From NCBI GenBank assembly GCA_017464475.1, contig JAFTZQ010000003.1, positions 122,037 to 186,036 on the forward strand: a DNA stretch of 64,000 bases, read 5' to 3'. The notes under the pieces were generated by a model. It made no database searches. It was not told where the DNA came from and saw only the letters and a list, made by a program, of their open reading frames with translations. Shown piece after piece: positions 13,586 to 30,510 of this stretch. The stretch is from Paludibacteraceae bacterium. GTDB lineage: Bacteria; Bacteroidota; Bacteroidia; Bacteroidales; Paludibacteraceae. The stretch's first letter is position 1; each line of letters starts with the position of its first letter. A program made the position numbers and the translations under genes.

Positions 13586-13654
13586 ATAGTGCGTCGCACT
13601 TACCCCTTCTACTTGGGGACTCAATACGCACGCGAGTGTTCCTTGACATGTTGA
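13586..13654. repeat. 69-base hairpin-rich repeat, left copy
   Basis: Starts ATAGTGCGTCGCAC (GTGCG-T-CGCAC hairpin), runs through CCCCTTCTACTTGGGG and ends TTCCTTGACATGTTGA. The copy at 28659-28727 appears to differ at one base. Both copies are direct and each precedes a toxin-antitoxin-type gene cluster at one side of the island. Confidence 0.85.
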
Positions 13655-13668
13655 CATATTGGATCATA

Positions 13669-13712
13669 AAAACAACGGTAACCCGTTTGTTTGGATTACC
13701 GTTTTGGTTTAT
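13669..13712. terminator. Bidirectional terminator between adhesin operon L and the PIN module
   Basis: AACGGTAA and TTACCGTT form a stem around an 18-base loop, with T-rich tails on both strands. It is close downstream of the minus-strand PIN toxin gene. The stem matches the island terminators at 15582, 23411 and 30241. Confidence 0.65.
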
Positions 13713-13772
13713 TGTGAAAATCTTCGTTACGAAATTGTTGTATTAGATGAACAATCCCGAAATAGCGCAAAT

Positions 13773-14192
13773 CTATGCTAAGGATTGTAATTCTTGAAGA
13801 AAATCATTAATCCCGATTACATTGACAGATGGGAAATCAATTGTTTTGAGAACGTCAAAATGATGATCTTCAGAAACAATGTATTTGGCGTTGGCTTTAA
13901 TCGCACAATCAACGAACTTGTTGTCGTCTGGATCGGCTTCTATCAAGCCAAAACGGAAATACACTTTTATATGTTTGGTATTTGTGCGGTTTAGAATAGC
14001 CCGAATGATATTTTGCGCCACCTCGGGAGACCCCGTACGAAGAGCAATAATTTCCTCATACTCGTTTAAGATTTCATCGGTGAAACACAGGCAATACTTG
14101 TTTCTCATAAACCCTTCCCAAATAGGAAAGTATATGCTGTCCCGTTTGATGGAAGGAATAAGGCAGTTGGTATCTAATACAATGTTCTCCAT
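13773..14192 (-). CDS. PIN-domain toxin
   Basis: A 139-aa protein beginning MENIVLDTNCLIPSIKR; the early DTN is the first PIN acidic residue. FTDEILNEYEEI supplies the middle acidic cluster and ADPDDNKFVDCAI followed by YIVSEDHHF is the classic C-terminal PIN pattern (DxxD...SxD). This matches the 'PIN-family putative toxin component' (TIGR00305-like): single-strand RNases usually held inactive by an antitoxin encoded just upstream. Here that partner ends 7 bases before the start at 14192. The family assignment is strong; the RNA target is not known. Confidence 0.88.
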   Translation of the reverse strand: MENIVLDTNCLIPSIKRDSIYFPIWEGFMRNKYCLCFTDEILNEYEEIIALRTGSPEVAQNIIRAILNRTNTKHIKVYFRFGLIEADPDDNKFVDCAIKANAKYIVSEDHHFDVLKTIDFPSVNVIGINDFLQELQSLA

Positions 14193-14199
14193 TGATTCA

Positions 14200-14412
14200 T
14201 CAATAAGCAGTTCTAAAATGTTCTGTGGACCAAGACTGAATCATAGGAGTAGACAACGTGCCTTCTTGACAAAGCCGATCCATTTCATCCAACGCTTTAT
14301 TGGAGAAATATTCTGCGATCAGATTGCGAATATCGCATAACTCTTGGTCGCTGTGTACGTTTGCGATACTATCCAAAATCTGCATTTGGTAAGGTGTAAA
14401 AACTCGTTCCAT
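14200..14412 (-). CDS. Antitoxin of the PIN module
   Basis: A 70-aa mostly helical protein (MERVFTPYQMQILDSIANVH, ending STEHFRTAY) directly upstream of the PIN toxin on the same strand. Length, charge and gene order fit an antitoxin. The N-terminal half ('Q.L.DI.NLI.EYF...ALDEM..L') would be the dimer or DNA-binding part; I do not recognise a named antitoxin family. Confidence 0.75.
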   Translation of the reverse strand: MERVFTPYQMQILDSIANVHSDQELCDIRNLIAEYFSNKALDEMDRLCQEGTLSTPMIQSWSTEHFRTAY

Positions 14413-14861
14413 AATAAATCCCTTTCAATTTTGCTCGCAAAATTACTGCTTTTATTTGGAATGTGCAAATTTTTAAGCGAAATTTCAGTCCATATAAGTA
14501 ATTTTAAGCTTAAAACTTACTTTTGCAGAAGTAATTAAGGTAATCCAATATGTCAATACGTCAAAGATCGTTGCTCCGTTTACCGGAGCGCCGGTAAAGC
14601 CGGACTTAATTTACAATCACAGGGTAACCCAATACCCGATGACTATATGAAAATGTAAATAAATAACTAACAACTTCAGATTCTCAAAAGTAGTTACAAC
14701 CGCTGGTGCAGCTGGCTCAACAAAAACGCTCATTTAATTGAACCACAGATAAATGCTTATTTGAAAATTTCAAGTATTCCTGAAAAAGTCAAATAACACA
14801 CAAAAACATTTCGTTTTCGGTTCTATAAAACAACAGAACGAACTTTGAAATGATGTAATAT
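14413..14861. other. Intergenic stretch with a two-hairpin repeat
   Basis: No gene is supported. It holds the promoter side of the PIN module, a 60-base repeat at 14553-14612 (see separate entry), and about 249 bases (14613-14861) of AT-rich sequence that are absent from the matching place on the right (29213/29214). Confidence 0.6.
14553..14612. repeat. 60-base two-hairpin repeat, left copy
   Basis: Contains the stems GCTCCG-TTTAC-CGGAGC and CCGG-TAAAG-CCGG and ends CGGACTTAATTT. The right copy is 29154-29213, with few differences. Both are direct and both stand between a TA cluster and the micro-ORF repeat. Confidence 0.8.
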
Positions 14862-15040
14862 GCGAAATTATTCGTATCTTTGCAAAAAACGGAGATGGGA
14901 TTTTGTATAGTGTACTTTGCAAATCGAAGGAATCTTCAAAAAAATATACTACGCTCTTGCACAATTCAAAAAAAAGTTGTATCTTTGCTCCACTTTTAGA
15001 AATAACAAAAGTACCAACGGTTAAGACACTACTTTTGCGC

Positions 15041-15124
15041 ATGACTAAAGCAACTGCATATCACCCTTCTATCTTCGGCATGGCCACTTCCGGCAATGTG
15101 TATGGGGACGAATGCGCCATATAG
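15041..15124 (+). CDS. 27-aa micro-ORF of the cassette repeat, copy A
   Basis: Encodes MTKATAYHPSIFGMATSGNV followed by YGDECAI, between a promoter (TATCTTTG about 60 bases upstream) and a hairpin terminator. The same reading frame, length and stop exist in copies B and C with a few changes (T/I, A/V, H/Q). It might be a real peptide or part of a structured RNA: TATGG and CCATA near its end can pair. No homologue is known to me. Confidence 0.45.
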   Translation: MTKATAYHPSIFGMATSGNVYGDECAI

Positions 15125-15125
15125 A

Positions 15126-15163
15126 GACAAAACCCGATCATCAGGTTTTGCCTCTTTTCTTTT
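15126..15163 (+). terminator. Terminator after micro-ORF, copy A
   Basis: Stem CAAAACC/GGTTTTG around a nine-base loop, followed by CCTCTTTTCTTTT. Identical stem in copies B (22741-22778) and C (29480-29517). Confidence 0.7.
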
Positions 15164-15318
15164 GTCCGCCACCGATTAGTACACTATTGATCTTTGACAT
15201 AGTGGAATTACCGAAAAAAGCAGAAAAACAGACGTTTTTTGCCCAAATGCTTGCATATTCCTGGAAAAAGTCGTACCTTTGCACCCGCAAAGGTTAAAGC
15301 AACAAATATTTGAGAGAT

Positions 15319-15471
15319 ATGTTAACGACACCTGTTAGAGAAAGCGGCAGTCAGCCAATGATTAGCGGCAATGGAAACGAAGTGTACTACACTCATGAGG
15401 AGTTCATGGATGAGTTGGCTAAGCAACTTGGTCAAGTTTATGGTTTGAATGATATAAGGGAGGCACGCTAA
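15319..15471 (+). CDS. Antitoxin, copy A (toxin partner deleted)
   Basis: A 50-aa protein, MLTTPVRESGSQPMISGNGN to YGLNDIREAR, differing from copy B (22934) by one visible residue (YYTHEEF versus YYTREEF). The middle, EEFMDELAKQLGQVYGLNDI, resembles the toxin-binding end of the 79-aa antitoxin at 29664 (VYKHLGSLYGLNDIREAK), so both belong to one RelB/ParD-like group with different N-termini. The promoter TACCTTTG lies at about 15275-15282. The frame is intact although the toxin is broken, which would leave an immunity-only locus. Confidence 0.7.
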   Translation: MLTTPVRESGSQPMISGNGNEVYYTHEEFMDELAKQLGQVYGLNDIREAR

Positions 15472-15555
15472 TGCGTTACACCATCCGATTCTTCTGTTGA
15501 AGGAGAAATTGTATATATCCATCGTATTATGCCCCAAAGCATGATTATTCTGTAA
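15471..15555 (+). pseudogene. RelE/ParE-type toxin remnant, copy A
   Basis: Starts exactly like the intact toxin at 23086 (MRYTIRF) but 221 bases are missing; the deletion joins two ATTC tetranucleotides and shifts the frame, giving a stop after nine codons. The last part of the gene, encoding the HRIMPQSMII end, remains out of frame up to 15555. The short direct repeat at the junction suggests slippage or microhomology-mediated deletion. Confidence 0.88.
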
Positions 15556-15581
15556 GTAATCACAACCTTATTATAAATTAC

Positions 15582-15621
15582 AAACGGTAATTCCATTATC
15601 AAACGGAGTTACCGTTTTTTG
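15582..15621. terminator. Terminator after TA copy A
   Basis: AAACGGTAA ... TTACCGTTTTTT stem with a T-tail. Near-identical copies follow the TA pairs at 23411-23452 and 30241-30281. Confidence 0.8.
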
Positions 15622-15723: not shown

Positions 15724-16450
15724 AGAGTGAATGAGGGAATGAACGAGGGAGTGATGGTAAACAAAAACAAATAAAACACTGCGATGCTAAAATTATAATG
15801 TAATCAAAAAACGAAAACAAAAATGCGGAATCATCAGTTACTCATCGTAACTAAATGAAATCGCTCATCAGTTCACTTGTAAGCAAGTTTCCAGACGACT
15901 GCTAACCGATTCATTTTTCAGTACCAATAAATTGCCACTGATAGATTCCTTACAAAAAAATCGCTTCGCTTTCAAAAAAAATAAGAAAAATAGCATCGCC
16001 GCCATAAACCGAAAAAAACAATTGATCTACTTACAGAGAGAAAGTGAAAATAAACAGTGAGCAAGGAGAGAGGGCGAGAAAAACAGAGATTGTGTCTTTT
16101 TTTGAGAGAGATTTTTGGTAAAAAAGACACAAGGTACATAAAAAAAGACACAAGCTAGATGTGAGGGTTGTTCCCTTTGGAAGCAAAAAAGTAACAAGTC
16201 CAAAAGGGAAAGAGACCCTACAGTGACGTGCGTAATGCGAATGAGAATGGATGCTAAATGAATAAAAAAAACAAACAACAAATAATAGTTGTGCCCGACA
16301 GGGATGAAGGGGAAAGAAGATATAGTACTATCGTTCGGTACTTAAAAAGGGAACGAAAAGATCTTTGACATAGTGAAACAAAAGAAATAGAGACACACTA
16401 ATGCGCATCTCTATAGAAGAATGATGCAAAGCATGAGGTCGTATTCCGTG

Positions 16451-17644
16451 CTATACTTTTAGCATCCAATCTAGAACGTATGTTTGATGAATGCCGTCAT
16501 GATCAACGTCCGGTTGGTTGTCAAGCGTTAACAAGTATTTCGGATAATGATCTTTGATTGCTCGTAAGGAAGACAACTCTCGCTCTAATGTATCCGGTTC
16601 GATGACACTTTCTGCAACTTGATAGTATTCGACAGAACCATTACGTTGTGCGACAAAGTCCACCTCGGCGCCGTTTACGTATCCTACAAATACTTGGTAT
16701 CCACGACGACGCAACTCAAGGTAAACGACATTTTCCAAGACTCGGCCTCTATCTGCTATACGTCTTCCCAATAGTGTTTGGCGCAGTCCGACATCTGCAA
16801 GGTAATATTTCTGACCTATACGCAGTAATTCATTCCCTTTAACATCAAAGCGTCTAACCGGATAGAACAGAAAAGCATCACAGATATATTGCAAATACGT
16901 GTCGATGGTATGTGAATTGGTTTTCATACCTGCAGAAGTGAGGGTGTCCGCAATACGTTTGCTGCTATTCAGATTGCCGATGTTGTCAGCTAAGAAACGA
17001 GCAAGACGTATAAGCGTATTGATGTTATCAATCTTATTATGCATCACCACATCGCGCATGACAATAGTATTGAAGATATCCTGCAAATAAACTTGCAGTT
17101 GGAACGAGTCCGATATCTGCAGCGCGTATGGAAAAGACGATGTATCAGTATAACGTTTGAACACATCTAACGAATAGCCCTTGTTGACAGATGTAAATTC
17201 CGAGAAAGAGAGCGGGAAGATATGAATGGTGATATAGCGTCCTGATAACAAAGTGGCTAATTCACCGGAAAGCATGTGAGAATTACTTCCGGTGATGTAA
17301 ATATCCACATTGGGTTGCAGATATATACTATTTACAACGCGTTCAAAGCCATCAACGAGCTGCACCTCATCCAAGAAGATGTAATTTTGCTTATTCGCAC
17401 AGAGGTGTTCTTTGATGTAGGCATATAAAGATTTGGCATCAAGCAGATAATCATTATCCATTTCTTCGAATCGGATACTTATAATTTGCTCTTTGGATAT
17501 GCCGGAAGCAAGCAACTCTTTTTGGAATTGCATCAGGAGTGTACTTTTTCCGGAACGGCGAATGCCGGTAATCACTTTGATGATTTGCTTATCCTTCCAA
17601 CTCGCGAGTTGTTGCAGATAACTTTCACGTCTGATTTCGTTCAT
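16451..17644 (-). CDS. AAA-type ATPase with DUF4143 domain
   Basis: A 397-aa protein; the start MNEIRRESYLQQL at 17644 is preferred because a TATCTTTG -7 box lies at 17672-17679 on the minus strand. Walker A is GIRRSGKST (about residue 27), Walker B is YIFLDEVQ, and the arginine-finger region ends with ITGSNSHML. The C-terminal DUF4143 domain carries VDFVAQRNGSVEYYQVAE, a PD-(D/E)XK-like fold pattern. Bacteroidota genomes carry many such genes; they are thought to be mobile or stress-related ATPases but no biochemical role is established. It lies alone within the island, facing away from its neighbours. Confidence 0.88.
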   Translation of the reverse strand: MNEIRRESYLQQLASWKDKQIIKVITGIRRSGKSTLLMQFQKELLASGISKEQIISIRFEEMDNDYLLDAKSLYAYIKEHLCANKQNYIFLDEVQLVDGFERVVNSIYLQPNVDIYITGSNSHMLSGELATLLSGRYITIHIFPLSFSEFTSVNKGYSLDVFKRYTDTSSFPYALQISDSFQLQVYLQDIFNTIVMRDVVMHNKIDNINTLIRLARFLADNIGNLNSSKRIADTLTSAGMKTNSHTIDTYLQYICDAFLFYPVRRFDVKGNELLRIGQKYYLADVGLRQTLLGRRIADRGRVLENVVYLELRRRGYQVFVGYVNGAEVDFVAQRNGSVEYYQVAESVIEPDTLERELSSLRAIKDHYPKYLLTLDNQPDVDHDGIHQTYVLDWMLKV

Positions 17645-17995
17645 ATGGTTATGTGATTTTAAAATCGGCGGCAAAGATACAAAATTATTTTGAATTAATG
17701 AAATATATTTCAAACTTTTTGTAAAAAATATGATTTTTTGAAGCATATTTCAAAGTTTTACACCAAATCGGACGCATAAATCAATTGTTTCACTATGTTT
17801 TTTGAAAGCATAAAACTGCAAGAGAAAAGGACTAAGTAAAATAGTCAAACAAATATAAAGAAAAGTGCGCACGGACTAAGAGTGCAAAAAGAATATGGCA
17901 AAATTATATATTATAGGAAATGGCTTTAACAAGGCTTATAGGAGGTGGGCGTAATAAAAACAATTTGAATATAAAATCTAACAATAAACAACAAT
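17645..17995. other. AT-rich intergenic region with an AbiH remnant
   Basis: Apart from the ATPase promoter and the short AbiH-like remnant at 17895-17954 nothing is recognised. The segment marks a sharp change to AT-rich sequence that continues to about 22.3 kb. Confidence 0.6.
17895..17954 (+). pseudogene. N-terminal remnant of an AbiH-type gene
   Basis: A short frame reads MAKLYIIGNGFNKAYRRWA before a stop. The first eleven residues match the nucleotide-binding start of AbiH proteins and of the intact AbiH at 20480 (KLYIIGNGFDLAH). The rest of the gene is absent; the 791-aa gene starts 42 bases later. This suggests that an older AbiH was replaced at the same position. Confidence 0.65.
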
Positions 17996-20371
17996 ATGTT
18001 AATTTGTATATTTTGCGACATATTAGATTATATTTTGGGACACATGAATGGTGTCGTCAATAGTATGATAGATTTTTTGAGACCATTCTTTATTTCAGTC
18101 TTTGCTTTTACTATTCCATTCTTATATAATGCAAGACTGAATCTTGACAAGAGGTATAAAACTTCACTTGTTTCCAAAAAATTTGCGGAAACAAGAGGAT
18201 ACCACTTTTTCTGGATAATGAATATTATTGCGTTCAGCATATGCCTTTCATATGTTCTATTCAAAGATCAAATTAGACTTGCTCCGAGTCTTTATTTTGC
18301 ATGCGCAGATTTGCTGGCAATATTTTTCATTCTCTATCTCATTTCAATAGCGTTATTATACAGCGAAATTGTCAAATTAGGGGAGTTTACTCACACCACT
18401 GAATTGATTAAGAAAGAGATAAAAGATAGCACCCCGTTAGATACGTACAAAAAAGCATACAATAAAGTTACGAAAATATCACAATGGCTCACACATGCAC
18501 ACAATAGTTCTGCTAATGTTATAAAGAAATTTCTTCACTGGACAAAACGAACCTCTATTAGAATAATGGCTTTTGTTCGGGTTATAAATGGAAGGTTTAT
18601 ATACAAGATTTCCATATTTAGAAATAATAAGATTGAATCAGTTTTAAATAAAATTGACAAAGAAAACAAAAGAAATTATGAGTATATTCTTAAAATATGG
18701 GAATATGCTATCAAAAATCAAGACAATGTTGTTTTCAACCAAGCAAGAGAAGCCGCGCAGAAAATAGTTCAATATTATCAATATCTGCAAAATAGTAAAG
18801 ACGAGGTTGTATATCCTCAATGGTTTTATGATAACATTAATACATTAATTAAAGATACATTTGTCAATAACTCCACGATTGGTTTTGATACTCAGTTGTA
18901 TAATGTCCTTCGCTTGTATCTCGAAGATGATTACCACACTCATCTGAGTTTTAGGACTCTCAACGAGGTGGATAAATGTATGGATTTGGCGATTAAGTAT
19001 CAGCGTTTAGAATTCATAAAATGTTTCTTACTGCTGGCTGAAATTTATTATTTAGATCCCATACAACGAGACGAAGTTGCTAATTGGAACAAACGCGGGC
19101 AAGATAAATTTATTCCATTTGCGGATAATCCCGCCTTTGTTTGGGCGCTATTTGTTTACGTATTACGTGCTAAAGTATTTGCTGCTCATTTATATCAACC
19201 ATTATTAGAGACAGAAGATTTTGTTGGTGTTAGAAGAACTCCAAATTCTAAGCATCTATATCGAATGGCTATTGATGAGATACTTCAAATGTATATTATG
19301 GCTAATTCCGCATGTACGGGTTATTCCTTCGTTTTCGCAAACATCTATCCATACATATTCTGGGACAACAAAACATTTATTAAGCAGCTGAATGATTATA
19401 CCGCATTCCTTATCTTAAAGAATGGAAAGGAAATAAATATAGATAGCATACGGCAAACTGTAAGTGCGGTTCCCAATGAACTATTACCAAGATATTTCTC
19501 TCAATTAAAACAAATAATTGTAGAGTTTAAGAGGGATTATAAACTAATGGCAATGTTTAGATTAGATATGTCATTTGATGAAAATATCCTTGACGAGATA
19601 CACGATGCTTTCAAACAAAATAAAGCAGAAGAACTAAAGAAGATGCCAATCAGCCAAGCCAAAGAAAATCTATTTATTGAAATTAGCAGAGACTGTTTAA
19701 ACACCTTCTTATCAGAACTCAATGATTTATTTGATACAGAATTAGGATCTATAGATGATAAGAATAAAATTGAATTAGAGGCATTAAAGATAGATAGTAT
19801 CGATAAACGCGCGTTCATAGAGCAAGCAGATTTGGATGCTCAGAGTGTCCTATATGCACCCGCTAACTACTTTGCAAGGTACGTTAAAGAAAGAATATTC
19901 AAGACATTGCATTCCTACATAAAAGATGCTCAGCGAATAACTATTGACGAAATGAGCGAGATGGAAGAGGCTATCAAACAGCATGTAGGATATAATGCAA
20001 AAGATTATATTTTTATCGATTTCTCTTTGCCCTATTTCATACCTGAAGACAACAAGTTACTTCAAATATCAAATAGAACATATTCCTATGATGGCATTAA
20101 GTTTATAAAAGAGGAATCGTGGATATTAGACGACTTGAGCAGAAGCTTATTGATAATAAAAAAGCAAGACATTTTATCTCTTGTAAGCAAGAATGATGTT
20201 CAAGAGAAATACATCGGGGATGGTTTGTTGAATACATATTATAAAATTGAGCCAGACAATAATACTGTAGGGCAAGAACCAAGTGTAACGGTTACTATTG
20301 GTTCGAGCAAAGATGTATATTACTCTAAAGATATAGAAGTTTATCAAATAAAAGTTAACCAGAAATGGTGA
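17996..20371 (+). CDS. Unknown 791-aa membrane protein upstream of abiH
   Basis: The start could be M1 (17996) or the MNGVVNSM methionine at 18044. Three hydrophobic spans lie in the first ~130 residues (FFISVFAFTIPFLY, FFWIMNIIAFSICLSYVL, ADLLAIFFILYLISIALLY), followed by a ~650-residue, probably cytoplasmic, helix-rich and charged region without recognised motifs. Base composition is strongly AT-rich, unlike the flanking adhesin genes, which suggests horizontal gain. It runs in the same direction as AbiH 108 bases downstream. The layout (membrane anchor plus large cytoplasmic part beside an abortive-infection gene) suggests a phage-defence role, but I cannot name a family. Confidence 0.6.
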   Translation: MLICIFCDILDYILGHMNGVVNSMIDFLRPFFISVFAFTIPFLYNARLNLDKRYKTSLVSKKFAETRGYHFFWIMNIIAFSICLSYVLFKDQIRLAPSLYFACADLLAIFFILYLISIALLYSEIVKLGEFTHTTELIKKEIKDSTPLDTYKKAYNKVTKISQWLTHAHNSSANVIKKFLHWTKRTSIRIMAFVRVINGRFIYKISIFRNNKIESVLNKIDKENKRNYEYILKIWEYAIKNQDNVVFNQAREAAQKIVQYYQYLQNSKDEVVYPQWFYDNINTLIKDTFVNNSTIGFDTQLYNVLRLYLEDDYHTHLSFRTLNEVDKCMDLAIKYQRLEFIKCFLLLAEIYYLDPIQRDEVANWNKRGQDKFIPFADNPAFVWALFVYVLRAKVFAAHLYQPLLETEDFVGVRRTPNSKHLYRMAIDEILQMYIMANSACTGYSFVFANIYPYIFWDNKTFIKQLNDYTAFLILKNGKEINIDSIRQTVSAVPNELLPRYFSQLKQIIVEFKRDYKLMAMFRLDMSFDENILDEIHDAFKQNKAEELKKMPISQAKENLFIEISRDCLNTFLSELNDLFDTELGSIDDKNKIELEALKIDSIDKRAFIEQADLDAQSVLYAPANYFARYVKERIFKTLHSYIKDAQRITIDEMSEMEEAIKQHVGYNAKDYIFIDFSLPYFIPEDNKLLQISNRTYSYDGIKFIKEESWILDDLSRSLLIIKKQDILSLVSKNDVQEKYIGDGLLNTYYKIEPDNNTVGQEPSVTVTIGSSKDVYYSKDIEVYQIKVNQKW

Positions 20372-20479: not shown

Positions 20480-21454
20480 ATGAAAACTAAGAAGTTGTAC
20501 ATTATCGGTAATGGTTTTGATTTGGCGCATAAACTACCGACAAGTTATGAAGATTTTTATGAATGGCTCAATGGGACGAGTTATGTGCAAGAAAATCCAA
20601 CAAATGACGACCATTTCTTGGCTGCAATGATTGATATTTTTAAATTCTCTGAGATAAATGGTAAGTCTATTAAGTTATGGAGTGATTTTGAAAACGCATT
20701 AGGTCATTTAGACATAGAGAGTTTTATTCATTATGTAGCTAACGAATATACCGATGAAGAAAATGTTGCTGAACTTGGGCTGCTCTCGGAGCAAGTATAT
20801 GCATATTTAAATTACATATCTAAACCTGATGCTTTAGATCGTATTCAAGAGCGCTTTGCAGCTTGGGTAAGAGATTTACCCCAATACGAAGATAATTATC
20901 CAATATACAATATAGATAAAGATGGACTTTTCTTGACGTTTAACTACACAGACACATTAGAGAAAGTGTATAGGATTAATCCAAATAATGTATTACACAT
21001 CCATGGTCAGGCGTCCGATCCGAATGCGAATATTGTAGTAGGACACAGAACCAAATATAATACAGGTAAATATGCTAAGACTGAAGAAAAACTATTTGGA
21101 ATAGATGCTGATATTTTCCCTTTAGTAGTAAATGCGATGAATGGATTAAGGAAGCCCATAGAAGAAATTATTGCAGACAATCACCAGTGGTTTGATAATC
21201 TTGTTAAACAAAATGTTACTGAAATCTATCTTTATGGCTTGTCCCTAGGAGAGATTGATGACAATTACTTCATGGAAATACATAGATTGTTGCCGAATAT
21301 TCGGTGGAATTTTGCAGTCTATGCCCCTGGTGAGCGTACGCAGAAATCTAATGTGGGTAAAATTAATGATTTCATCAAAAGAATAGGGATTGGTAAAGAA
21401 AAATGTTTTGCATTTAATCAAGATCCCCTATTCAATGAGGAAATTGAATTGTAA
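20480..21454 (+). CDS. AbiH-family abortive infection protein
   Basis: A 324-aa protein beginning MKTKKLYIIGNGFDLAHKLP, the diagnostic Rossmann-like start of AbiH (IGNGFDLAH). Later hallmarks are FLTFNYTDTLEKVY, VLHIHGQASD, VVGHRTKY and IYLYGLSLGEIDDNYF. AbiH proteins give bacteria resistance to some phages; the mechanism is not settled and the fold is related to Sir2-type NAD-binding proteins. Length fits the family. AT-rich; an AbiH stub lies 2.5 kb upstream. Confidence 0.9.
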   Translation: MKTKKLYIIGNGFDLAHKLPTSYEDFYEWLNGTSYVQENPTNDDHFLAAMIDIFKFSEINGKSIKLWSDFENALGHLDIESFIHYVANEYTDEENVAELGLLSEQVYAYLNYISKPDALDRIQERFAAWVRDLPQYEDNYPIYNIDKDGLFLTFNYTDTLEKVYRINPNNVLHIHGQASDPNANIVVGHRTKYNTGKYAKTEEKLFGIDADIFPLVVNAMNGLRKPIEEIIADNHQWFDNLVKQNVTEIYLYGLSLGEIDDNYFMEIHRLLPNIRWNFAVYAPGERTQKSNVGKINDFIKRIGIGKEKCFAFNQDPLFNEEIEL

Positions 21455-22739: not shown

Positions 22740-22740
22740 A

Positions 22741-22778: not shown

Positions 22779-22933
22779 GTCCGCCACCGATTAGTACACT
22801 ATTGATCTTTGACATAGTGGAATTACCGAAAAAAGCAGAAAAACAGACGTTTTTTGCCCAAATGCTTGCATATTCCGGGAAAAAGTCGTACCTTTGCACT
22901 CGCAAAGGTTAAAGCAACAAATATTTGAGAGAT

Positions 22934-23410: not shown

Positions 23411-23452
23411 TAAAAACGGTAATTCCATTATCAAACGGAGTTGCCGTTTTTT
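23411..23452. terminator. Terminator after TA copy B
   Basis: AAAAACGGTAA ... TTGCCGTTTTTT stem-loop with T-tail; one stem base differs from copy A. Confidence 0.8.
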
Positions 23453-23832
23453 GTGCGTATACACCATTCACGCGCGAAATAAGAAAGATACTACTAATAA
23501 CTACGAACATAAAAAAACAAAAATAGTTGTGCCCGAGGGGGATGAGGGGATGAAAACGATGAGCGATTAACGAGTGAACGAATGAACGGGTGAATGATGG
23601 ACGAGTGGGGGGAAAAGAAGATATAGTACTATCGTTCGGTACTTTAAAAAGGAACGAAAAGATCTTTGACATAGTGATTCCATAAGGAATAATCGAAAAG
23701 TGCGATTTTATTGTATTTTCTTTTGGGGAAACGTCTTATTTTATTAAAAAACGATTATTTTTCCAAAGAAAGTCTTGCATATGTCAGAAATTTTTAGTAA
23801 CTTTGCAGTGTTTTTAAAACGACTGCAATATT
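23453..23832. other. Intergenic stretch between TA copy B and the DUF1016 gene
   Basis: Holds the 30-base element (23524-23550), a degenerate 8-base tandem repeat (AACGAGTG/AACGAATG/AACGGGTG, about 23566-23612), a shared block ending GATCTTTGACATAGTG (about 23617-23676, also at 16315-16377) and the DUF1016 promoter. Confidence 0.6.
23798..23805 (+). promoter_or_regulatory. Promoter -7 box of the DUF1016 gene
   Basis: TAACTTTG, with CTTGCATATGTC as the -33 region about 20 bases upstream; the ATG is 28 bases downstream. Confidence 0.7.
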
Positions 23833-25066: not shown

Positions 25067-25096
25067 TAGTTGTGCCCGACACGGATGAGGGTGAAA
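25067..25096. repeat. 30-base intergenic element, copy 4
   Basis: TAGTTGTGCCCGACACGGAT followed by GAGGGTGAAA; ends eight bases before the RhuM-PLD start codon. Confidence 0.8.
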
Positions 25097-25104
25097 GATA
25101 GAAG

Positions 25105-25974
25105 ATGGCAGAAGAGATGCAAACATATGGTCAAACAAACGAATCTGTAGTTATATACCAAAGCGCGGATAACGCGGTTCGGTTGGATGTGCAACTCGCC
25201 GAAGAAACGGTTTGGTTGAGCCAAAAGCAGATGGCACAATTGTTCGACACTACTCCACAGAACATCACTCTGCATATAGGTAATGTTTATAAAGAGCAGG
25301 AACTAACTCAATCAGCAACATGTAAGGATTTCTTACAAGTTCAAATCGAGGGAGGAAAAGAGAAACGTCGTTTAACCAAGTTCTATAACTTGGATGTGAT
25401 TATCTCTGTAGGTTACCGAGTAAAGAGTAAAAGGGGTACCCAATTCCGCCAATGGGCGACTAAGGTGCTTAATCAGTATATACGTCAGGGCTATGCGGTA
25501 AGCAATCGATTCGAGAAATTGGAGCAGAGGATGACAAACGTTGAGAATCAAATCGAATCTTTTGTGCATGCTGCACTTCCTCCCAAAGAGGGAATCTTTG
25601 CGGACGGACAAATATATGATGCGTATGAGTTTATTGAGCGTTTGATTAAGTCTGCAAAGAAAACGATAGTACTGATAGACAATTACGTAGATGAGTCGGT
25701 ATTGACAATGCTGAGCGGAAAAAACAAAGGAGTACAAGTGGATATTTATACCAAAGAGTTGTCGAATGCGTTGTTACTGGCACAAGACAAGTTTAACAGC
25801 CAATACGGAAACTTATCTCTCCATCAAACGAACCGCGTGCATGATCGGTTTATGATTATTGACAACCAAACGATTTATCTCATCGGAGCATCATTAAAAG
25901 ATGCGGGCAAACGGCTCTTTGCCTTCACCAAGATGAGCGCCACGCATATTGAGGAACTAAAGAAACTATTGTAA
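25105..25974 (+). CDS. RhuM-family protein fused to a PLD-like domain
   Basis: A 289-aa protein. The N-terminal part has the RhuM signature (VWLSQKQMAQLFDTTPQNIT, HIGNVYKEQEL, KFYNLDVIISVGYRVKSKRG, FRQWATKVLNQYIRQGY). From about residue 175 a second domain reads FIERLIKSAKKTIVLIDNYV and VHDRFMIIDNQTIYLIGASL, a single phospholipase-D-like half with HxRx4D in place of the usual HxKx4D. Family knowledge: RhuM proteins are common on islands and were first noted in Salmonella; function is unclear. The leader is a copy of the 30-base island element. Confidence 0.85.
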   Translation: MAEEMQTYGQTNESVVIYQSADNAVRLDVQLAEETVWLSQKQMAQLFDTTPQNITLHIGNVYKEQELTQSATCKDFLQVQIEGGKEKRRLTKFYNLDVIISVGYRVKSKRGTQFRQWATKVLNQYIRQGYAVSNRFEKLEQRMTNVENQIESFVHAALPPKEGIFADGQIYDAYEFIERLIKSAKKTIVLIDNYVDESVLTMLSGKNKGVQVDIYTKELSNALLLAQDKFNSQYGNLSLHQTNRVHDRFMIIDNQTIYLIGASLKDAGKRLFAFTKMSATHIEELKKLL

Positions 25975-26019: not shown

Positions 26020-26025
26020 TTGAGT

Positions 26026-26442
26026 ATGGCAAACGAGAATAAGTTAAAACATCTTGAATTTATTCAGGCAGTGATAGCCCGGATGAATGAAAACTCATGC
26101 CACATCAAGACATGGTGTGTCACTATTTTAGCGGCATTAGGTGCCATGTATAATTTGAAACCCAGTATTTTTATTATTGTTATGGCATGTGCTATTGTTG
26201 TGATATTTTGGTCTTTAGATGCGTATTATCTCTGTCTGGAACGTAAATTTAAAAGGATGTATCATGATGTTGCCACGAAGAAAGAAAGTGAAATTAATTT
26301 CTCAATGAGAGAATGGCATTATCAATCCTCCTATTGGCAAGCAGTATTCAGTAAGGCGGCGCGAAGATTTTATCTCTCATTGCTCATTTTGTTAATTCTG
26401 ACAGGTGCATGTATATTATTATATCCGTATTTCGCTAAATAA
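26026..26442 (+). CDS. Small membrane protein paired with an MBL-fold hydrolase
   Basis: A 138-aa protein starting MANENKLKHLEFIQAVIARM. It has two close hydrophobic spans (VTILAALGAMYN and IFIIVMACAIVVIFWSLDAY), a cytoplasmic stretch with LERKFKRMYHDV, and a third near the C-terminus (LSLLILLILTGACILLYPYF). I have the impression of a widespread family of unknown function with the pattern 'LEFIQ.VI.RM..NS..IK.W.V'. The MBL gene follows 67 bases downstream on the same strand without a visible terminator between them, so the two may form a pair. Confidence 0.7.
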   Translation: MANENKLKHLEFIQAVIARMNENSCHIKTWCVTILAALGAMYNLKPSIFIIVMACAIVVIFWSLDAYYLCLERKFKRMYHDVATKKESEINFSMREWHYQSSYWQAVFSKAARRFYLSLLILLILTGACILLYPYFAK

Positions 26443-26509: not shown

Positions 26510-27772
26510 ATGACAAACATTAGATTAGATAGAACATTTTGGCCTGTGGGGCATGGGGCATTCTATACAGAACGCTTCTTTAACCATGAGAATGGTACTA
26601 TTTTTACGGCCGTCTATGATTGCGGTGGAAGAGGAAATTGGCGAAAAGGCAATCATACTTCAAAAAGTTCGCCTTTTATGGAAAATATGGTTAGGGATTA
26701 CTTCTTCGAAACTTTCCAAGGGAAATCGCCGGTGATAAATGTGCTTTTTATATCACACCTACACAGAGATCACATAAATGGTATTCCAAGTTTACTACCA
26801 TATACTCAGCGAATTGTTCTACCTCAATTGGAAGAGGAATCATACCTTGAATCTTTTATATATAATGCTATCACGAGCGATACAAATGCTTTAGATGTAA
26901 ATAGTGATATACAATCGCTGATTATCAATTTGGCAAGAGGGGAGAACCGTGCAGGTGAGGCGTTGATAACTCGTGTTCGTCCGAGTCAAGGAGAAGGAAG
27001 AAACCAAGAACATAATGAACAAAACGATTTTAATGGCTTAGGAGACCATATAAATAGTGGCACCCCTATCTTTGTTCCAACTTTTAATACCGCGGGCATT
27101 CCCTTCTGGATTTATATACCTGTGAATTTGCCGATAGAAATGAAAAAAGAAGAGACATTGTTGGATGTACTCTGTGATAAGTTGGCTACGAATCTCAAAG
27201 GAGAAAAAGGGGTTAATTGGGGAGCATTACAAGAAGCACTAAGACATGCGGACATCAAAGAGATTAAGAAGGTTTATGAGACATATTTTGATATCAAGGA
27301 TGACAACCATAATTTTTATTCTATGCCTGTCTTTTCTGGTCCAATTGCCGGACAACCATATCATTGGTATTTGAATGACTTTGATTTCTTTGATGAAGAG
27401 ATTCTTCCTTATCATTGGCAGCGGGGAATCTTTCATCACCATCGTCCGTTGGAAAGAAAATTATTGTCATGCTTGTATATGGGAGACTTTGAGGCATCAG
27501 AAGAAGACAATCTTTACAAGTTAGAAAAGGAATTAGACAAATACTATTATCGTGTAGGTTTACAACAGGTGCCTCACCATTACTCAAGCAACAATCATGA
27601 CATTTATTTGTATGAAGACCGCATATTGGCATTTGGTAATGTGGACGACCATAAAGATGTGAGTTTCCGTCATTCTGTTTACAGAGAAATATACCGCACA
27701 ACATACTTTCCCCCTCTCGCAATAACCGAAAAGGATTCTCCTGTAAAAATAATATATGAGTTGTTTTTGTAG
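26510..27772 (+). CDS. ComEC-like metallo-beta-lactamase-fold hydrolase
   Basis: A 420-aa soluble protein. The metal motif FISHLHRDHINGIPSL is at about residues 80-95 (HxHxDH), a GD motif (CLYMGDFEASEED) at about 323, and VPHHYSSNNH at about 352, the ComEC-type PHHxS signature. The spacing is typical of stand-alone ComEC-like MBL proteins, here with a ~150-residue insertion that has no recognised domain. Substrate unknown; members act on nucleic acids or nucleotides. It pairs with the membrane protein just upstream. Confidence 0.85.
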   Translation: MTNIRLDRTFWPVGHGAFYTERFFNHENGTIFTAVYDCGGRGNWRKGNHTSKSSPFMENMVRDYFFETFQGKSPVINVLFISHLHRDHINGIPSLLPYTQRIVLPQLEEESYLESFIYNAITSDTNALDVNSDIQSLIINLARGENRAGEALITRVRPSQGEGRNQEHNEQNDFNGLGDHINSGTPIFVPTFNTAGIPFWIYIPVNLPIEMKKEETLLDVLCDKLATNLKGEKGVNWGALQEALRHADIKEIKKVYETYFDIKDDNHNFYSMPVFSGPIAGQPYHWYLNDFDFFDEEILPYHWQRGIFHHHRPLERKLLSCLYMGDFEASEEDNLYKLEKELDKYYYRVGLQQVPHHYSSNNHDIYLYEDRILAFGNVDDHKDVSFRHSVYREIYRTTYFPPLAITEKDSPVKIIYELFL

Positions 27773-27866: not shown

Positions 27867-27930
27867 ATAGTGCCACAATCAGCACTCAAAAACGATTGAA
27901 TTGATCCTTGAAATGATGTAAATAAATAAC
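27867..27930. repeat. Intergenic cassette-border repeat, copy 2
   Basis: ATAGTGCCACAATCAGCACT, then a CAATC/GATTG hairpin, then TTGATCCTTGAAATGATGTA and AATAAATAAC. It lies just before the promoter of the YoeB-type module. Copy 3 (30444-30510) is almost identical. Confidence 0.85.
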
Positions 27931-28033: not shown

Positions 28034-28273
28034 ATGGCAACACTAACATTACAAGTTCCCAATGCGCAAGTTGGTTGGTTAGAGCAAATGGCACGCTCAA
28101 TGGGTTGGGTGTTCCATAAAGAGGAGACATCCGAAGTAGAGCAGGATGGTGCAAACGTCATCACTCCGGCTATGCGCCGCTCCATCAACAAAGCCCGTAA
28201 AGAATCCCGGTTTGGAGAAACCGTAATATGCCGAAACAAAACCGAGATGCAACAATTCTTCGATAGTTTGTGA
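28034..28273 (+). CDS. Antitoxin of the YoeB-type module
   Basis: A 79-aa protein (MATLTLQVPNAQVGWLEQMA, ending EMQQFFDSL). The N-terminus 'P.A.V..…AR.MGW' is shared with the orphan antitoxin at 28820 (MEDVIIRMPSADVAMIMQFA, RRMGW). The C-terminal half, MRRSINKARKESRFGETVIC, probably contacts the toxin. Its stop overlaps the toxin start by one base. Confidence 0.8.
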   Translation: MATLTLQVPNAQVGWLEQMARSMGWVFHKEETSEVEQDGANVITPAMRRSINKARKESRFGETVICRNKTEMQQFFDSL

Positions 28274-28545
28274 TGTACACCATTGAGTATTCAAAAGCAG
28301 CGAAGAGAACTCTGAAGAAATGGAAGAAGTCCAATCCTCAGTTGTTCCTGAAAGCGACGAAGATATTGTTTGATATCATGGAGCATCCTCGCACCGGTTT
28401 GGGACACCCTGAACCGCTGGTTGGAGGAAAGGAAATTACCTATTCTCGTCACATAACGGCTCACGACAGAATCATCTATGACATATACGAGGAAACTATT
28501 TCCGTACTTGTCATTCAAGTCGAAGAGCATTACAACGATAAATAA
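28273..28545 (+). CDS. Txe/YoeB-family toxin (RelE superfamily)
   Basis: A 90-aa protein from the ATG at 28273 (a GTG one codon earlier is possible). The pattern YTIEYSKAAKRTLKKWKKSN, then MEHPRTGLGHPEPLVGG, then YSRHITAHDRIIYDIYEE and EEHYNDK closely follows YoeB (GxGxPExL, R-HR-Y, SxHY-like end). YoeB-type toxins cleave mRNA at the ribosome. It is followed by a strong terminator. Confidence 0.9.
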   Translation: MYTIEYSKAAKRTLKKWKKSNPQLFLKATKILFDIMEHPRTGLGHPEPLVGGKEITYSRHITAHDRIIYDIYEETISVLVIQVEEHYNDK

Positions 28546-28658: not shown

Positions 28659-28727
28659 ATAGCGCGTCGCACTTACCCCTTCTACTTGGGGACTCAATAC
28701 GCACGCGAGTGTTCCTTGACATGTTGA
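28659..28727. repeat. 69-base hairpin-rich repeat, right copy
   Basis: ATAGCGCGTCGCAC through TTCCTTGACATGTTGA; appears to match the left copy (13586-13654) except for one base, direct orientation. Confidence 0.85.
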
Positions 28728-28819: not shown

Positions 28820-29032
28820 ATGGAAGATGTTATTATTAGAATGCCTAGTGCAGATGTAGCAATGATCATGCAGTTTGCACGTCGAATGGGATGGACTATC
28901 GAGAATCTGCCTAATCCTTATACTTGGGATGAGGTTCGCACTCGCTTGTCTGTTGCACAAACTCAATTTGCCAATGGGCAATACAAATCCCACGAAGAAG
29001 TGATGCAGCCCCGCAAAAGAGAAACATTATGA
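28820..29032 (+). CDS. Orphan antitoxin-like protein
   Basis: A 70-aa protein, MEDVIIRMPSADVAMIMQFA ... PRKRETL, related in its first 25 residues to the YoeB-module antitoxin 0.8 kb upstream but with another C-terminus (WDEVRTRLSVAQTQFANGQY). The start at 28820 is set by the -7 box at 28786. No toxin frame follows: the sequence after the stop is non-coding. Either the toxin was lost or the protein acts as a regulator or anti-addiction partner. Confidence 0.65.
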   Translation: MEDVIIRMPSADVAMIMQFARRMGWTIENLPNPYTWDEVRTRLSVAQTQFANGQYKSHEEVMQPRKRETL

Positions 29033-29393
29033 GAGCTTGTTCCTGATACGCTCAGCGCACGCTTTGAGAAATAACCACTCTTCTTAAGCATAATTCCATA
29101 GCTTTTCAGTCAGACACCGCATTTGCTGTGTCTGATTTGTTTTTCAGTCTTATTCAATACGTCAAAGATCGTTGCTCCGTTTATCGGAGCGCCCGGAAAG
29201 CCGGACTTAATTTGCGAAATTATTTGTATCTTTGCAAAAAACGGAGATGGGATTTTGTATAGTGTACTTTGCAAATCGAAGAAATCTTCAAAAAAATATT
29301 CTATACATTTGCATAATCCAAAAAAATGTTGTATCTTTGCACCACTTATTAGAAATAACAAAAGTACCAACGGTTAAGACACTACTTTTGCGC
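29033..29393. other. Intergenic stretch between orphan antitoxin and micro-ORF C
   Basis: Holds AGACACCGCATTTGCTGTGT near 29113, which forms a hairpin (AGACAC.GC/GC.GTGTCT) and may terminate the orphan antitoxin; then the two-hairpin repeat (29154-29213) and the first part of cassette copy C. Confidence 0.6.
29154..29213. repeat. 60-base two-hairpin repeat, right copy
   Basis: GCTCCG-TTTAT-CGGAGC stem and ending CGGACTTAATTT; directly joined to cassette copy C, while the left copy is separated from copy A by 249 bases. Confidence 0.8.
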
Positions 29394-29477
29394 ATGACTA
29401 AAGCAACTGCATATCAACCCTCTACCTTCGGCATGGCCACTTCCGGCAATGCGTATGGGGACGAATGCGCCATATAG
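29394..29477 (+). CDS. 27-aa micro-ORF of the cassette repeat, copy C
   Basis: Encodes MTKATAYQPSTFGMATSGNA followed by YGDECAI. See copy A (15041) for discussion. Confidence 0.45.
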   Translation: MTKATAYQPSTFGMATSGNAYGDECAI

Positions 29478-29479
29478 AG

Positions 29480-29517
29480 ACAAAACCCGACTTTTAGGTT
29501 TTGCCTCTTTTCTTTTG
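29480..29517 (+). terminator. Terminator after micro-ORF, copy C
   Basis: CAAAACC/GGTTTTG stem with CCTCTTTTCTTTT tail. Confidence 0.7.
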
Positions 29518-29663
29518 TCCGCCACCGATTAGTACACTATTGATCTTTGACATAGTGGAATTACCGAAAAAAGCAGAAAAACAGACGTTTTTTGCCCAAA
29601 TGCTTGCATATCTCAGAAAAAAGTCGTACCTTTGCACCCGCAAAGGTTAAAGCAACAAAAGTT

Positions 29664-29903
29664 ATGGTACAGACACAACCGACATTTCAGAGTGTATTGA
29701 ATATGGTATATATGCTGCCGTATGACGAGCAGAAACAATTGTTGGCTAAGGTTTCTTATAACTTGGCTCTCAATAATCCGGAGCCGTTAATCGATTCCGA
29801 TTGGAGGAGCAAACCGACATATTCTGTTGATGAAGTTTTTGATAAGGTGTATAAACATCTTGGTAGTTTGTATGGTTTGAATGATATTCGGGAGGCTAAA
29901 TGA
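29664..29903 (+). CDS. Antitoxin of the ParE/RelE-type module C
   Basis: A 79-aa protein from the ATG at 29664 (MVQTQPTFQSVLNMVYMLPY); the longer frame would start upstream of the TACCTTTG promoter at about 29627. The last 20 residues, DKVYKHLGSLYGLNDIREAK, match the ends of the 50-aa antitoxins of copies A and B, so the toxin-binding tail is shared while the N-terminus (Phd/RelB-like helices, LPYDEQKQLLAKVSYNL) differs. Overlaps the toxin start (ATGA). Confidence 0.8.
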   Translation: MVQTQPTFQSVLNMVYMLPYDEQKQLLAKVSYNLALNNPEPLIDSDWRSKPTYSVDEVFDKVYKHLGSLYGLNDIREAK

Positions 29904-30205
29904 TGACTCAGCGAGATGTCAAAATTACAGAAGCAGCCCTTTCTGATTTGTTTGAGTTAGATTATACAATTAGACGAGAATATCAGGCGCCATTAACAGC
30001 CGAGAGATATATTACAGGTCTCAAAGAGCAAATAAAGGAATTGTCTCAAGTCGCCGATTTGAGGATTGTGCAGGAAAAACTCTCTAAAGAATATGGGAAG
30101 GAAATCAGACGAGAGAATTACAAAGAGATGGCGATACTTTATTCAATAGAAGACGACGAAAAGGTGTATGTACATCGTATCATTTCTCAAAAGTTGGTGA
30201 GATAA
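29900..30205 (+). CDS. RelE/ParE-superfamily toxin, module C
   Basis: A 101-aa protein (start at 29900 or 29903), TQRDVKITEAALSDLFELDY ... DEKVYVHRIISQKLVR. The C-terminal KEMAILYSIEDDEKVYVHRI matches the strand pattern of the copy B toxin, but the proteins differ elsewhere. RelE/ParE fold; exact activity cannot be told from sequence. Confidence 0.85.
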   Translation: MMTQRDVKITEAALSDLFELDYTIRREYQAPLTAERYITGLKEQIKELSQVADLRIVQEKLSKEYGKEIRRENYKEMAILYSIEDDEKVYVHRIISQKLVR

Positions 30206-30240
30206 ATCACGCCCAATAACACAGCGCATAGGCGCAAGAT

Positions 30241-30281
30241 AAAAACGGTAATTCCATTATCAAACGGAGTTACCGTTTTTT
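30241..30281. terminator. Terminator after TA module C
   Basis: AAAAACGGTAA ... TTACCGTTTTTT stem-loop, same as copies A and B although the TA genes differ. Confidence 0.8.
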
Positions 30282-30443
30282 GTGTATAGGTTACCCATCC
30301 ACCGACCGATGAGCGGCAGACGAGCGGGAAATATACTATTTAGAACAGGACCATCACGGGATCATGTTCCGAGAAGAACGCAACGACAGTACAATCAGAA
30401 CAGTCACAATGCTACAGTCCGCACGAACTTACCGTGCCAAAAT

Positions 30444-30510
30444 ATAGTGCCGCAATCAGCACTCAAAAACGATTGAATTGATCCTTGAAATGATGTAAAT
30501 AAATAACAAA
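30444..30510. repeat. Intergenic cassette-border repeat, copy 3
   Basis: ATAGTGCCGCAATCAGCACT through ATGATGTAAATAAATAAC; nearly identical to 27867-27930. It lies at the right edge of the island. Confidence 0.85.

What the first reader, a model, noticed from the sequence alone, without database searches (positions are those of the whole stretch)
13586..30510. Modular toxin-antitoxin / defence island built from repeated cassettes
Five repeat families recur in a fixed order around the TA and defence genes: a 69-base hairpin repeat (13586, 28659), a 60-base two-hairpin repeat (14553, 29154), the micro-ORF cassette (14862, 22515, 29214), the AACGGTAA terminator (15582, 23411, 30241) and the cassette-border repeat (22208, 27867, 30444). 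On the left the frame encloses PIN and RelE-type modules, on the right an orphan antitoxin and another RelE-type module, with yet another copy in the middle. The repeats are thus a scaffold into which different TA or defence genes are exchanged, resembling a cassette array but without an integron integrase in view. This may be an undescribed gene-shuffling system.
Basis: partly seen in the sequence, partly recalled or inferred. Interest (0 to 1): 0.8.

Follow-up and report, generated by a model that had tools for sequence, protein, structure and literature searches.

The report
Integron-like cassette array with pseudoknot borders
A gut-bacterial island of toxin-antitoxin and anti-virus genes appears to be built from swappable cassettes whose borders share a folded pseudoknot and a short fixed sequence, looking like an independent counterpart of the integron.

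Summary
The repeats are real at the stated coordinates. Several of the "families" are one kind of object: a junction made of a hairpin, a tail complementary to its loop (H-type pseudoknot) and a 16-nt box, consensus GATCTTTGACATATTG. In 61 genomes of the same Paludibacteraceae genus, a model of hairpin plus box lists 95 sites in 30 genomes. The pseudoknot, not used in the model, holds in 32 of 45 hairpin-bearing sites outside the training set; swapped tails give 10.2. Neighbouring sites are mostly on one strand, about 1 kb apart, around TA, DUF1016, AAA_14, Bro-N, PIN and recombinase genes. Ends of similarity between genomes coincide with the box: 25 of 123 within 25 nt, 2.4 expected; 11 of 66 independent clusters, 1.7 expected. 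No integron integrase passes the cut-off (0 of 61) and attC core motifs are absent. A small serine recombinase clade often has a site at its stop codon; its sister clade has inverted repeats in that position and a restriction-modification gene. The window keeps a broken copy. Exchange at the box is well supported; the enzyme is inferred.

The parts
13586..13654 (+). junction repeat (69 nt): hairpins followed by box variant TTCCTTGACATGTTGA; not scored by model R1
   Evidence: D11, 99% identical to 28659-28727; identity ends at the box edge
13773..14192 (-). PIN_3 toxin gene
   Evidence: E 9.7e-15
14200..14412 (-). small ORF upstream of PIN, putative antitoxin (no family above cut-off)
14553..14612 (-). 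inverted junction: box on the minus strand (14554-14569) plus hairpins
   Evidence: D15 and I8; (17.7 bits, E 0.4)
14956..15188 (+). head element 1: promoter, conserved 26-nt hairpin 15009-15034, micro-ORF 15041-15124, terminator-like hairpin
15189..15204 (+). box GATCTTTGACATAGTG, start of ParE cassette 1
15310..15557 (+). ParE-type TA module 1; toxin broken by an internal deletion of about 218 nt
15579..15619 (+). AACGGTAA terminator copy 1
   Evidence: D8
16323..16375 (+). pseudoknot-plus-box junction site, loop TCGTTC pairs tail GAACGA
   Evidence: (63 bits)
16451..17746 (-). AAA_14/DUF4143 ATPase (PADLOC candidate PDC-S01)
17996..20371 (+). 791-aa protein, no family above cut-off
20480..21454 (+). 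AbiH
   Evidence: E 8.4e-55
21578..22144 (+). 188-aa putative membrane protein, no family above cut-off
22209..22261 (+). junction site (divergent border repeat; loop-tail complement TCAATC/GATTGA)
22262..22449 (+). remnant of the small serine recombinase: promoter and 5' end (94.7% to G022 over 94 nt) and a 3' piece (22413-22449, 81% over 37 nt), middle deleted
22553..22803 (+). head element 2 (hairpin 22624-22649, micro-ORF 22656-22739)
22804..22819 (+). box, start of ParE cassette 2
22925..23388 (+). ParE-type TA module 2 (toxin 23086-23388)
   Evidence: ParE_toxin E 0.0019, below the curated cut-off
23411..23451 (+). AACGGTAA terminator copy 2
   Evidence: D8
23624..23676 (+). pseudoknot-plus-box junction site
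   Evidence: 61 bits
23833..24912 (+). DUF1016/YhcG nuclease (PDC-S02); its cassette is 92% identical in G037 from the box onward, behind a different pseudoknot
25068..25084 (+). AGTTGTGCCCGACACGG element (one of five in the window; others at 15695, 16287, about 23525, 25991)
   Evidence: D4, 22
25105..25974 (+). RhuM/PLD-like protein (PDC-S05)
26020..26442 (+). PDC-M50A protein
26510..27772 (+). metallo-beta-lactamase-like protein (weak matches only)
27868..27918 (+). junction site (border repeat), loop CAATC pairs tail GATTG
   Evidence: D12, 47, 48
28034..28545 (+). YoeB/Txe-type TA module (toxin 28270-28545)
   Evidence: E 5.9e-12
28659..28727 (+). junction repeat (69 nt), second copy
   Evidence: D11
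28820..29032 (+). orphan antitoxin-like gene (no family)
29154..29213 (-). inverted junction, second copy
   Evidence: D15; (17.7 bits, E 0.4)
29291..29541 (+). head element 3 (hairpin 29362-29387, micro-ORF 29394-29477)
29542..29557 (+). box, start of ParE cassette 3
29664..30205 (+). ParE-type TA module 3 (toxin 29900-30205)
   Evidence: E 2.8e-7
30240..30280 (+). AACGGTAA terminator copy 3
   Evidence: D8
30445..30495 (+). last junction site (border repeat)
   Evidence: D12, 47, 48

Best explanation
The island is an array of gene cassettes that works like an integron but is not one. Each cassette carries one or a few genes (mostly TA, defence or mobile-type genes), often with its own promoter, and typically ends in a hairpin whose loop pairs with the following tail (a pseudoknot). 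The next cassette starts at the box GA[TA]C[TA]TTGACATATTG. DNA is exchanged at or very near the start of the box, so that the same cassette is found behind different pseudoknots and the same pseudoknot unit before different cassettes (shown by comparison). Direct sites would allow excision and insertion of a cassette, inverted sites (14553, 29154) inversion or replacement (inferred). The likely enzyme is the small serine recombinase of the DNA-invertase kind that lies directly before a site in a number of relatives; in this window it survives only as a remnant, so the array would depend on the copy elsewhere in the genome or be at rest (inferred).
For: Pseudoknot: 11 pairs, 91.5% of cells paired, 50 two-sided changes against 14.0 in shuffles (0 of 500 as high), slid controls 33-40% paired (23 rows picked partly for the pseudoknot); independent set 32 of 45 with at least 4 complementary nt against 10.2 mean, max 19 of 1000. 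Breakpoints: 25 of 123 similarity ends within 25 nt of a junction, null mean 2.4, max 10 of 500; after removing overlaps and clustering related ends, 11 of 66 clusters, null 1.7, max 6 of 500. Bro-N cassette starts 2-6 nt from the junction in G022, G026, G041 and G046 behind different upstream sequences; DUF1016 cassette, window against G037; AAA_14/DUF4143 module 95.5% identical in G043 and G046 up to 7 nt from the junction, then different pseudoknots; recombinase-plus-pseudoknot unit followed by three different sequences in G015 and twice in G030. Array form: 34 of 42 neighbouring sites on one strand (p 7e-5), median unit 1.04 kb; G044 C9: recombinase followed by five sites in a row. Enzyme: site or box within 100 nt after the recombinase stop in 8 of the 30 best genus loci, within 350 nt in 10; all 20 recombinases labelled site-adjacent fall on one side of one branch (100/99); in the sister clade an exact inverted repeat of 16 nt or more lies at or just behind the recombinase stop (14 of 51 loci read, 3 with a direct one), its partner inside an Eco57I-type gene in the two loci checked.
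Against: 98 of 123 similarity ends are not within 25 nt of a site; right ends of shared cassettes often lie some 90-150 nt after the gene, not at the next pseudoknot. The DUF1016 example has its BLAST end 35-37 nt from the junction, because the two different hairpins are partly alike. The recombinase also occurs without sites (28 of 45 genomes without strong sites) and sites occur without an adjacent recombinase, as in this window; 20 of the 30 best genus loci have no site within 350 nt. 15 of 75 hairpin-bearing sites lack a 4-nt loop-tail complement, and 21 of the 97 hits (20 mostly bare boxes, 1 repeat of the same place) were not in that test. No circular cassette, no strain comparison and no experiment were available. 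Sites outside the genus are rare (4 of 295 genomes of the order at E<=0.001: the own genome, one more of the genus, two others).
Confidence: 0.6

Rival explanations
1. The pseudoknot-plus-box is an RNA element (for example a 3' end or leader structure) kept by selection on expression, and the cassettes are swapped by ordinary homologous recombination in the short shared border.
For: Pairs with G.T outnumber A.C in the stem (10 against 5 over 97 rows) and in the pseudoknot (8 against 2 over 23 rows), as expected if the strand shown folds (the picking of rows allowed G.T). In one search, 10 of the 20 boxes with a promoter-like sequence behind them have it at 46-48 nt, so the box is tied to expression units.
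Against: The shared stretch at many junctions is little more than the box; flanking pseudoknots differ in sequence, and in the clearest cases ends lie 2-8 nt from the junction, tighter than I would expect of homologous exchange.
Confidence: 0.22
2. Another enzyme, such as a XerC/D-type tyrosine recombinase, acts on the sites and the serine recombinase is only one more cassette.
For: Every genome has tyrosine recombinases that match the integron-integrase model weakly (61 of 61 at E<=0.001, 0 over the cut-off); the recombinase unit is itself present twice in one array of G030. Genome-level co-occurrence of sites and recombinase is weak: 22 of 30 genomes with any site against 21 of 31 without (counted by hand); 15 of 16 against 28 of 45 for strong sites, a threshold set afterwards (p 0.024).
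Against: No tyrosine recombinase among the Pfam families shown for 61 array ORFs (25 of 28 families shown; one 65-aa ORF matched Phage_int_SAM_4 at E 0.0067, below its cut-off); the serine recombinase stop codon lies in the site itself in several loci and its sister clade has inverted repeats in that same position.
Confidence: 0.15
3. The hairpins are dispersed by a Y1 (HUH) transposase as REP/RAYT or IS200/IS605-type repeats, without cassette exchange.
For: Hairpin plus fixed neighbouring sequence recalls REP elements (recalled); Y1 families pass the cut-off in 18 of 61 genomes.
Against: No match in G000, G015, G021, G026, G041, G043 or G046, all with strong sites (the genomes are incomplete); breakpoints delimit gene units, not hairpins.
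Confidence: 0.03
4. An ordinary defence island whose repeats are only relics of duplication.
For: The micro-ORF/ParE/terminator module is plainly duplicated three times.
Against: Covariation among non-identical sites across species and breakpoints between species are not explained by duplication.
Confidence: 0.08

Closest known systems
Integron / CALIN (tyrosine integron integrase, attI, attC)
   Same: Tandem, mostly same-strand cassettes of about 1 kb; variable folded site at the cassette end; junction at a short fixed core; TA cassettes with their own promoters; a head with promoter that often lies next to a core gene (10 of 14 heads read); arrays can lack a nearby enzyme
   Different: No integron integrase over cut-off (0 of 61); no attC core motifs (RYYYAAC 0 of 72, GTTRRRY 1 of 72); pseudoknotted site; a serine recombinase beside the site
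Serine DNA invertases of shufflons and phase-variable restriction-modification genes
   Same: The G032 recombinase is 66-71% identical to family members of other genera, many of which lie before a TaqI_C-type specificity part, 14 of 51 loci with exact inverted repeats; the repeat is at or just behind the recombinase stop
   Different: Here different whole genes are exchanged, sites are mostly direct repeats with variable pseudoknots, and no restriction-modification gene is seen in the island
Bacteroides Mpi-type promoter invertons (recalled)
   Same: Small serine recombinase in Bacteroidales
   Different: Sites of Mpi flank single promoters (recalled); here sites border genes and gene blocks
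REP/RAYT and IS200/IS605 hairpin elements (recalled)
   Same: Dispersed hairpin beside a fixed sequence
   Different: No Y1 transposase match in the own, incomplete genome; sites are cassette borders

Membership tests
Integron | integron integrase (IntI, TIGR02249 over cut-off) | tested here: not met
   0 of 61 genomes over the curated cut-off (all 61 have weaker tyrosine-recombinase matches)
Integron | attC sites with RYYYAAC / GTTRRRY core | tested here: not met
   0 of 72 and 1 of 72 sites; background 2.8% and 3.8%
Integron | tandem cassettes each ending in a folded, sequence-variable site | tested here: met
   several units hold more than one gene and some similarities end before the site
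Integron | site-specific excision and capture of circular cassettes | not testable with these tools
   only comparative breakpoints
Serine DNA-invertase system (shufflon) | small serine recombinase (Resolvase domain, HTH) | tested here: met
   PF00239 E 2.5e-32 in a relative (L047); in the window only a remnant
Serine DNA-invertase system (shufflon) | inverted recombination sites that permute alternative ends of one gene | tested here: not met
   34 of 42 neighbouring sites direct; different genes between sites. In the sister clade inverted repeats are seen
REP/RAYT or IS200/IS605 repeats | Y1 transposase in the genome | tested here: not met
   no match in G000 (71% complete); 18 of 61 genomes over cut-off
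Defence island | cluster of known or candidate defence and TA genes | tested here: met
Rfam RNA families | match to a curated structured RNA | tested here: not met
   0 matches at gathering score in the window

The most novel reading that the evidence does not exclude
A serine-recombinase counterpart of the integron: a recombinase related to invertases of restriction-modification genes was recruited in gut Paludibacteraceae to cut and join pseudoknotted cassette ends, so that TA and anti-phage genes are captured, lost, inverted and passed between species as cassettes.
Probability: 0.45. Interest if true: 0.93.

Novelty: categorically new. Interest (0 to 1): 0.8.

Why it matters
Integrons are the best-known way in which bacteria collect single genes in ordered arrays. 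A second system with a different enzyme class and a pseudoknotted site, rich in toxin-antitoxin and candidate anti-phage genes, would show that gene-cassette capture evolved more than once, would help explain how defence islands of gut Bacteroidales are assembled, and would give a new recombination site whose recognition by fold can be tested directly. Eight text searches of the held open-access library (listings and starts of abstracts seen) showed no description of such a system.

Tried and rejected
Reading the box as an rRNA-type boxA: only 2 of 61 genomes hold part of a 16S gene, and the one 16S leader that could be read (G032, L124) has no such box. Reading the head as the mark of a single integration site: it occurs at several loci. 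Rfam: no match at gathering score. Phage origin: exact 24-nt box sequence and 26-nt hairpin not in viral contigs (0 each; exact matches only). Canonical attC: rejected. Y1 transposase: disfavoured. A link of sites and recombinase at genome level: weak (22 of 30 genomes with any site and 21 of 31 without have a close recombinase, counted by hand; 15 of 16 against 28 of 45 for strong sites).

Rows dropped before counts. A1 rows were picked partly for the pseudoknot, hence the independent set. Searches use 76 of the 97 hits; left out were 20 hits that are mostly bare boxes without hairpin (5 of them in the window) and 1 that repeats a place; 1 of the 76 had no stem. In one search, 27 of 76 were then dropped as present in A1 and exact duplicates merged (45 kept); similarities under 150 nt or 80%, pairs within one genome other than the window with itself, and ends within 30 nt of a locus end were left out; overlaps of L056/L057 and related ends are dealt with; 4 of 110 loci not parsed, identical proteins merged (93 rows), 33 unlabelled rows not counted, the label used simple patterns within 400 nt, and the bootstrap had not settled; 51 of 80 loci had 1.5 kb after the recombinase; random probes gave a mean longest match of 11.4 nt but reached 66 nt in single cases; sites of at least 26 bits plus window junctions added by hand; contig starts only, contig counts rounded, sites of one array not independent. 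One search scored fewer candidates per genome.

Full report
1. What was checked. The repeats exist as described and the box GATCTTTGACATAGTGGA is far beyond chance in the window (6 sites, 0.02 expected). (a) A duplicated module: promoter, 26-nt hairpin, micro-ORF (27 aa), terminator-like hairpin, box, promoter, ParE-type TA and AACGGTAA terminator, three copies, the first with a broken toxin. (b) A junction element, in several sequence variants, at many unit borders of the island. Five are scored clearly by the covariance model (16323, 22209, 23624, 27868, 30445). The 69- and 60-nt repeats (13586, 28659; 14553, 29154, inverted) carry hairpins and box variants but score weakly or not at all. 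The box stands without such a hairpin at 15189, 22804 and 29542.

2. The junction element. Lining up copies from related genomes showed a hairpin (commonly ATAGTGC-loop-GCACT), a tail of about 10-20 nt and the box. The loop is complementary to the tail. On 23 chosen rows all 6 pseudoknot pairs and 4 of 5 stem pairs show two-sided changes; 91.5% of cells pair against 33-40% when slid, and no shuffle of 500 reaches the covariation score. Since these rows were partly picked for the pseudoknot, I built a model with stem and box only (R1) and tested hairpin-bearing sites not in the training set: 32 of 45 have at least 4 nt of loop-tail complement against a mean of 10.2 (max 19 of 1000) when tails are swapped. 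In the full set it is 60 of 75 against 18.3 (max 28 of 500). Twenty further hits are mostly bare boxes and were not in these tests.

3. Distribution. R1 lists 95 sites in 30 of 61 genomes of the genus at E<=0.05, among good-quality genomes in 9 of 26. In 295 genomes spread over the order 4 have a match at E<=0.001: the own genome, one more of the genus and two others. Contigs of the genus that recur are titled Paludibacteraceae or Bacteroidales MAGs, several from goat, sheep, buffalo or cattle gut compartments. The 26-nt hairpin of the micro-ORF head (up to 2 mismatches) occurs in 14 of 61 genus genomes and in 0 of 40 others, mostly once per genome. Of the 14 heads read in relatives, 10 lie beside a core-type gene: a helix-hairpin-helix protein near LytB/IspH in six species, a UDP-GlcNAc epimerase in two, PNPase and uvrB in one each, with different TA, defence-type or giant genes on the other side (families checked on single copies, otherwise named by eye). 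The window's island lies in the same neighbourhood: the helix-hairpin-helix protein at 2385-4091 (weak HHH_3 match), PNPase at 51238-53511 and UvrB at 60125-62143.

4. Arrays. G044 C9 is the clearest: a recombinase, then five sites in a row, with HepT-like, DUF4160/DUF2442, two small ORFs without family, and DUF6169 genes before or between them on the strand of the sites. Over the loci read, 42 units of 0.36-5.8 kb (median 1.04 kb) lie between neighbouring sites, 34 with both sites on the same strand. In 61 ORFs from units outside the window (a mechanical list that includes spurious ORFs) the Pfam families shown (25 of 28) are AAA_14, Resolvase, DUF1016/YhcG, Bro-N, ParE, YafQ, PIN, DUF6169 and the like, each in 1-4 ORFs; no housekeeping family is among those shown. 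PADLOC candidates PDC-S01, S02, S04 and S13 recur (25 of 42 families shown).

5. Exchange at the box. Of 123 ends of similarity between loci of different genomes (or window copies), 25 lie within 25 nt of a junction; sites shifted at random give 2.4 (max 10 of 500); within 60 nt it is 34 against 5.4 (max 17). The ends are not independent: after removing an overlap and clustering ends that share a place, 11 of 66 clusters have an end within 25 nt, null 1.7, max 6 of 500. Examples: the DUF1016 cassette of the window is 92% identical in G037, in the pairwise alignment from the box onward, while the hairpins before it differ (the BLAST end lies 35-37 nt before the junction). The Bro-N cassette begins 2-6 nt from the junction in four species behind different upstream sequences. 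An AAA_14/DUF4143 module of G043 and G046 is 95.5% identical up to 7 nt from the junction and then continues into different pseudoknots. A recombinase-plus-pseudoknot unit is followed by three different sequences in G015 and G030. Within the window, the 69- and 60-nt repeats with inverted boxes frame a PIN module on the minus strand in one copy and an antitoxin-like gene on the plus strand in the other, with identity ending at the box edges. Against this stands that most similarity ends (98 of 123) are elsewhere, and that right ends are often some 90-150 nt behind the gene.

6. The enzyme. In one search no integron integrase passes the cut-off. A small serine recombinase (Resolvase domain and HTH) has a match in 49 of 61 genus genomes (43 with E below 1e-40, my count). 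Among the 30 best genus loci a site or box follows within 100 nt of its stop codon in 8 and within 350 nt in 10; in several the stop codon TAG is part of ATAGTGC. In a tree of 93 sequences the 20 rows labelled site-adjacent stand on one side of one branch with support 100/99, together with 16 unlabelled ones, and those beside TaqI_C-type parts on the other. In that sister group the recombinase is often followed at once by a TaqI_C-type specificity part; in 14 of 51 loci a stretch of 17-63 nt at or just behind its stop codon recurs exactly and inverted, mostly about 1.8 kb away (3 of 51 have a direct repeat of 16 nt or more), inside an Eco57I-type gene in the two loci checked, L230 and L261. 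I read this as a DNA invertase with its site right behind the gene. Contigs of the 80 named loci end within 200 nt on that side in 17 cases and in none on the other, and 9 of 95 genus sites start within 300 nt of a contig start, 1.1 expected; both fit repeated or population-variable junctions but have other possible causes. By position, the pseudoknot site is the likely target in the Paludibacteraceae clade. This step is inference. The window itself has only a remnant of this gene (22262-22449); an intact relative lies in G000 C13 with box-like sequences at about 0.1 and 0.8 kb behind it, which R1 did not report.

7. Naming. It works like an integron (array, folded variable site, fixed core, head often next to a core gene; integron features from passages of PMC8618304), but fails two defining features that were tested, so I do not file it as an integron. 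It is not a shufflon, since whole different genes are exchanged. The function of the micro-ORF head is open; its place suggests a starting site with promoter. Eight literature searches gave no such system (listings and starts of abstracts only; passages of PMC8618304 read).

Noticed in passing
L230 10001-14842, L261, L256 and other loci: Sister clade of the recombinase: likely DNA invertase directly before a TaqI_C-type specificity part, exact inverted repeats of 17-63 nt in 14 of 51 loci (Prevotella, Rikenella, Porphyromonas, Parasutterella and others); contigs often break right there.
   Followed up: partly
window 15009-15034, 22624-22649, 29362-29387; 14 genus genomes: Hairpin AAGTACCAACGGTTAAGACACTACTT before micro-ORFs whose peptides differ between species (by eye); the hairpin DNA is more alike than the peptides. 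Function unknown.
   Followed up: partly
window 4809-13546 and 30679-46037: Giant secreted-type proteins (one checked: List_Bact_rpt and fn3) flank the island here and lie near arrays in relatives.
   Followed up: no
L127, L129 (G000 C1 and C36): Boxes without clear pseudoknot beside ATPase-like ORFs of 390-445 aa (by eye), outside the island.
   Followed up: no
window 15695, 16287, 23525, 25068, 25991; L057:2197: AGTTGTGCCCGACACGG element between genes of the island, by eye also a small pseudoknot (CCC/GGG) but without box; one relative (L131:8297) has it joined to the box.
   Followed up: partly
L099 upstream of the recombinase: A tRNA-like sequence (by eye) directly before the recombinase in G044.
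   Followed up: no
L171:186, L050:7975, L052:4751, L174:7730, L178:8726: These sites are followed by the same sequence (ATTATGAAACACTTAAAC or a near variant), perhaps an array end.
   Followed up: no
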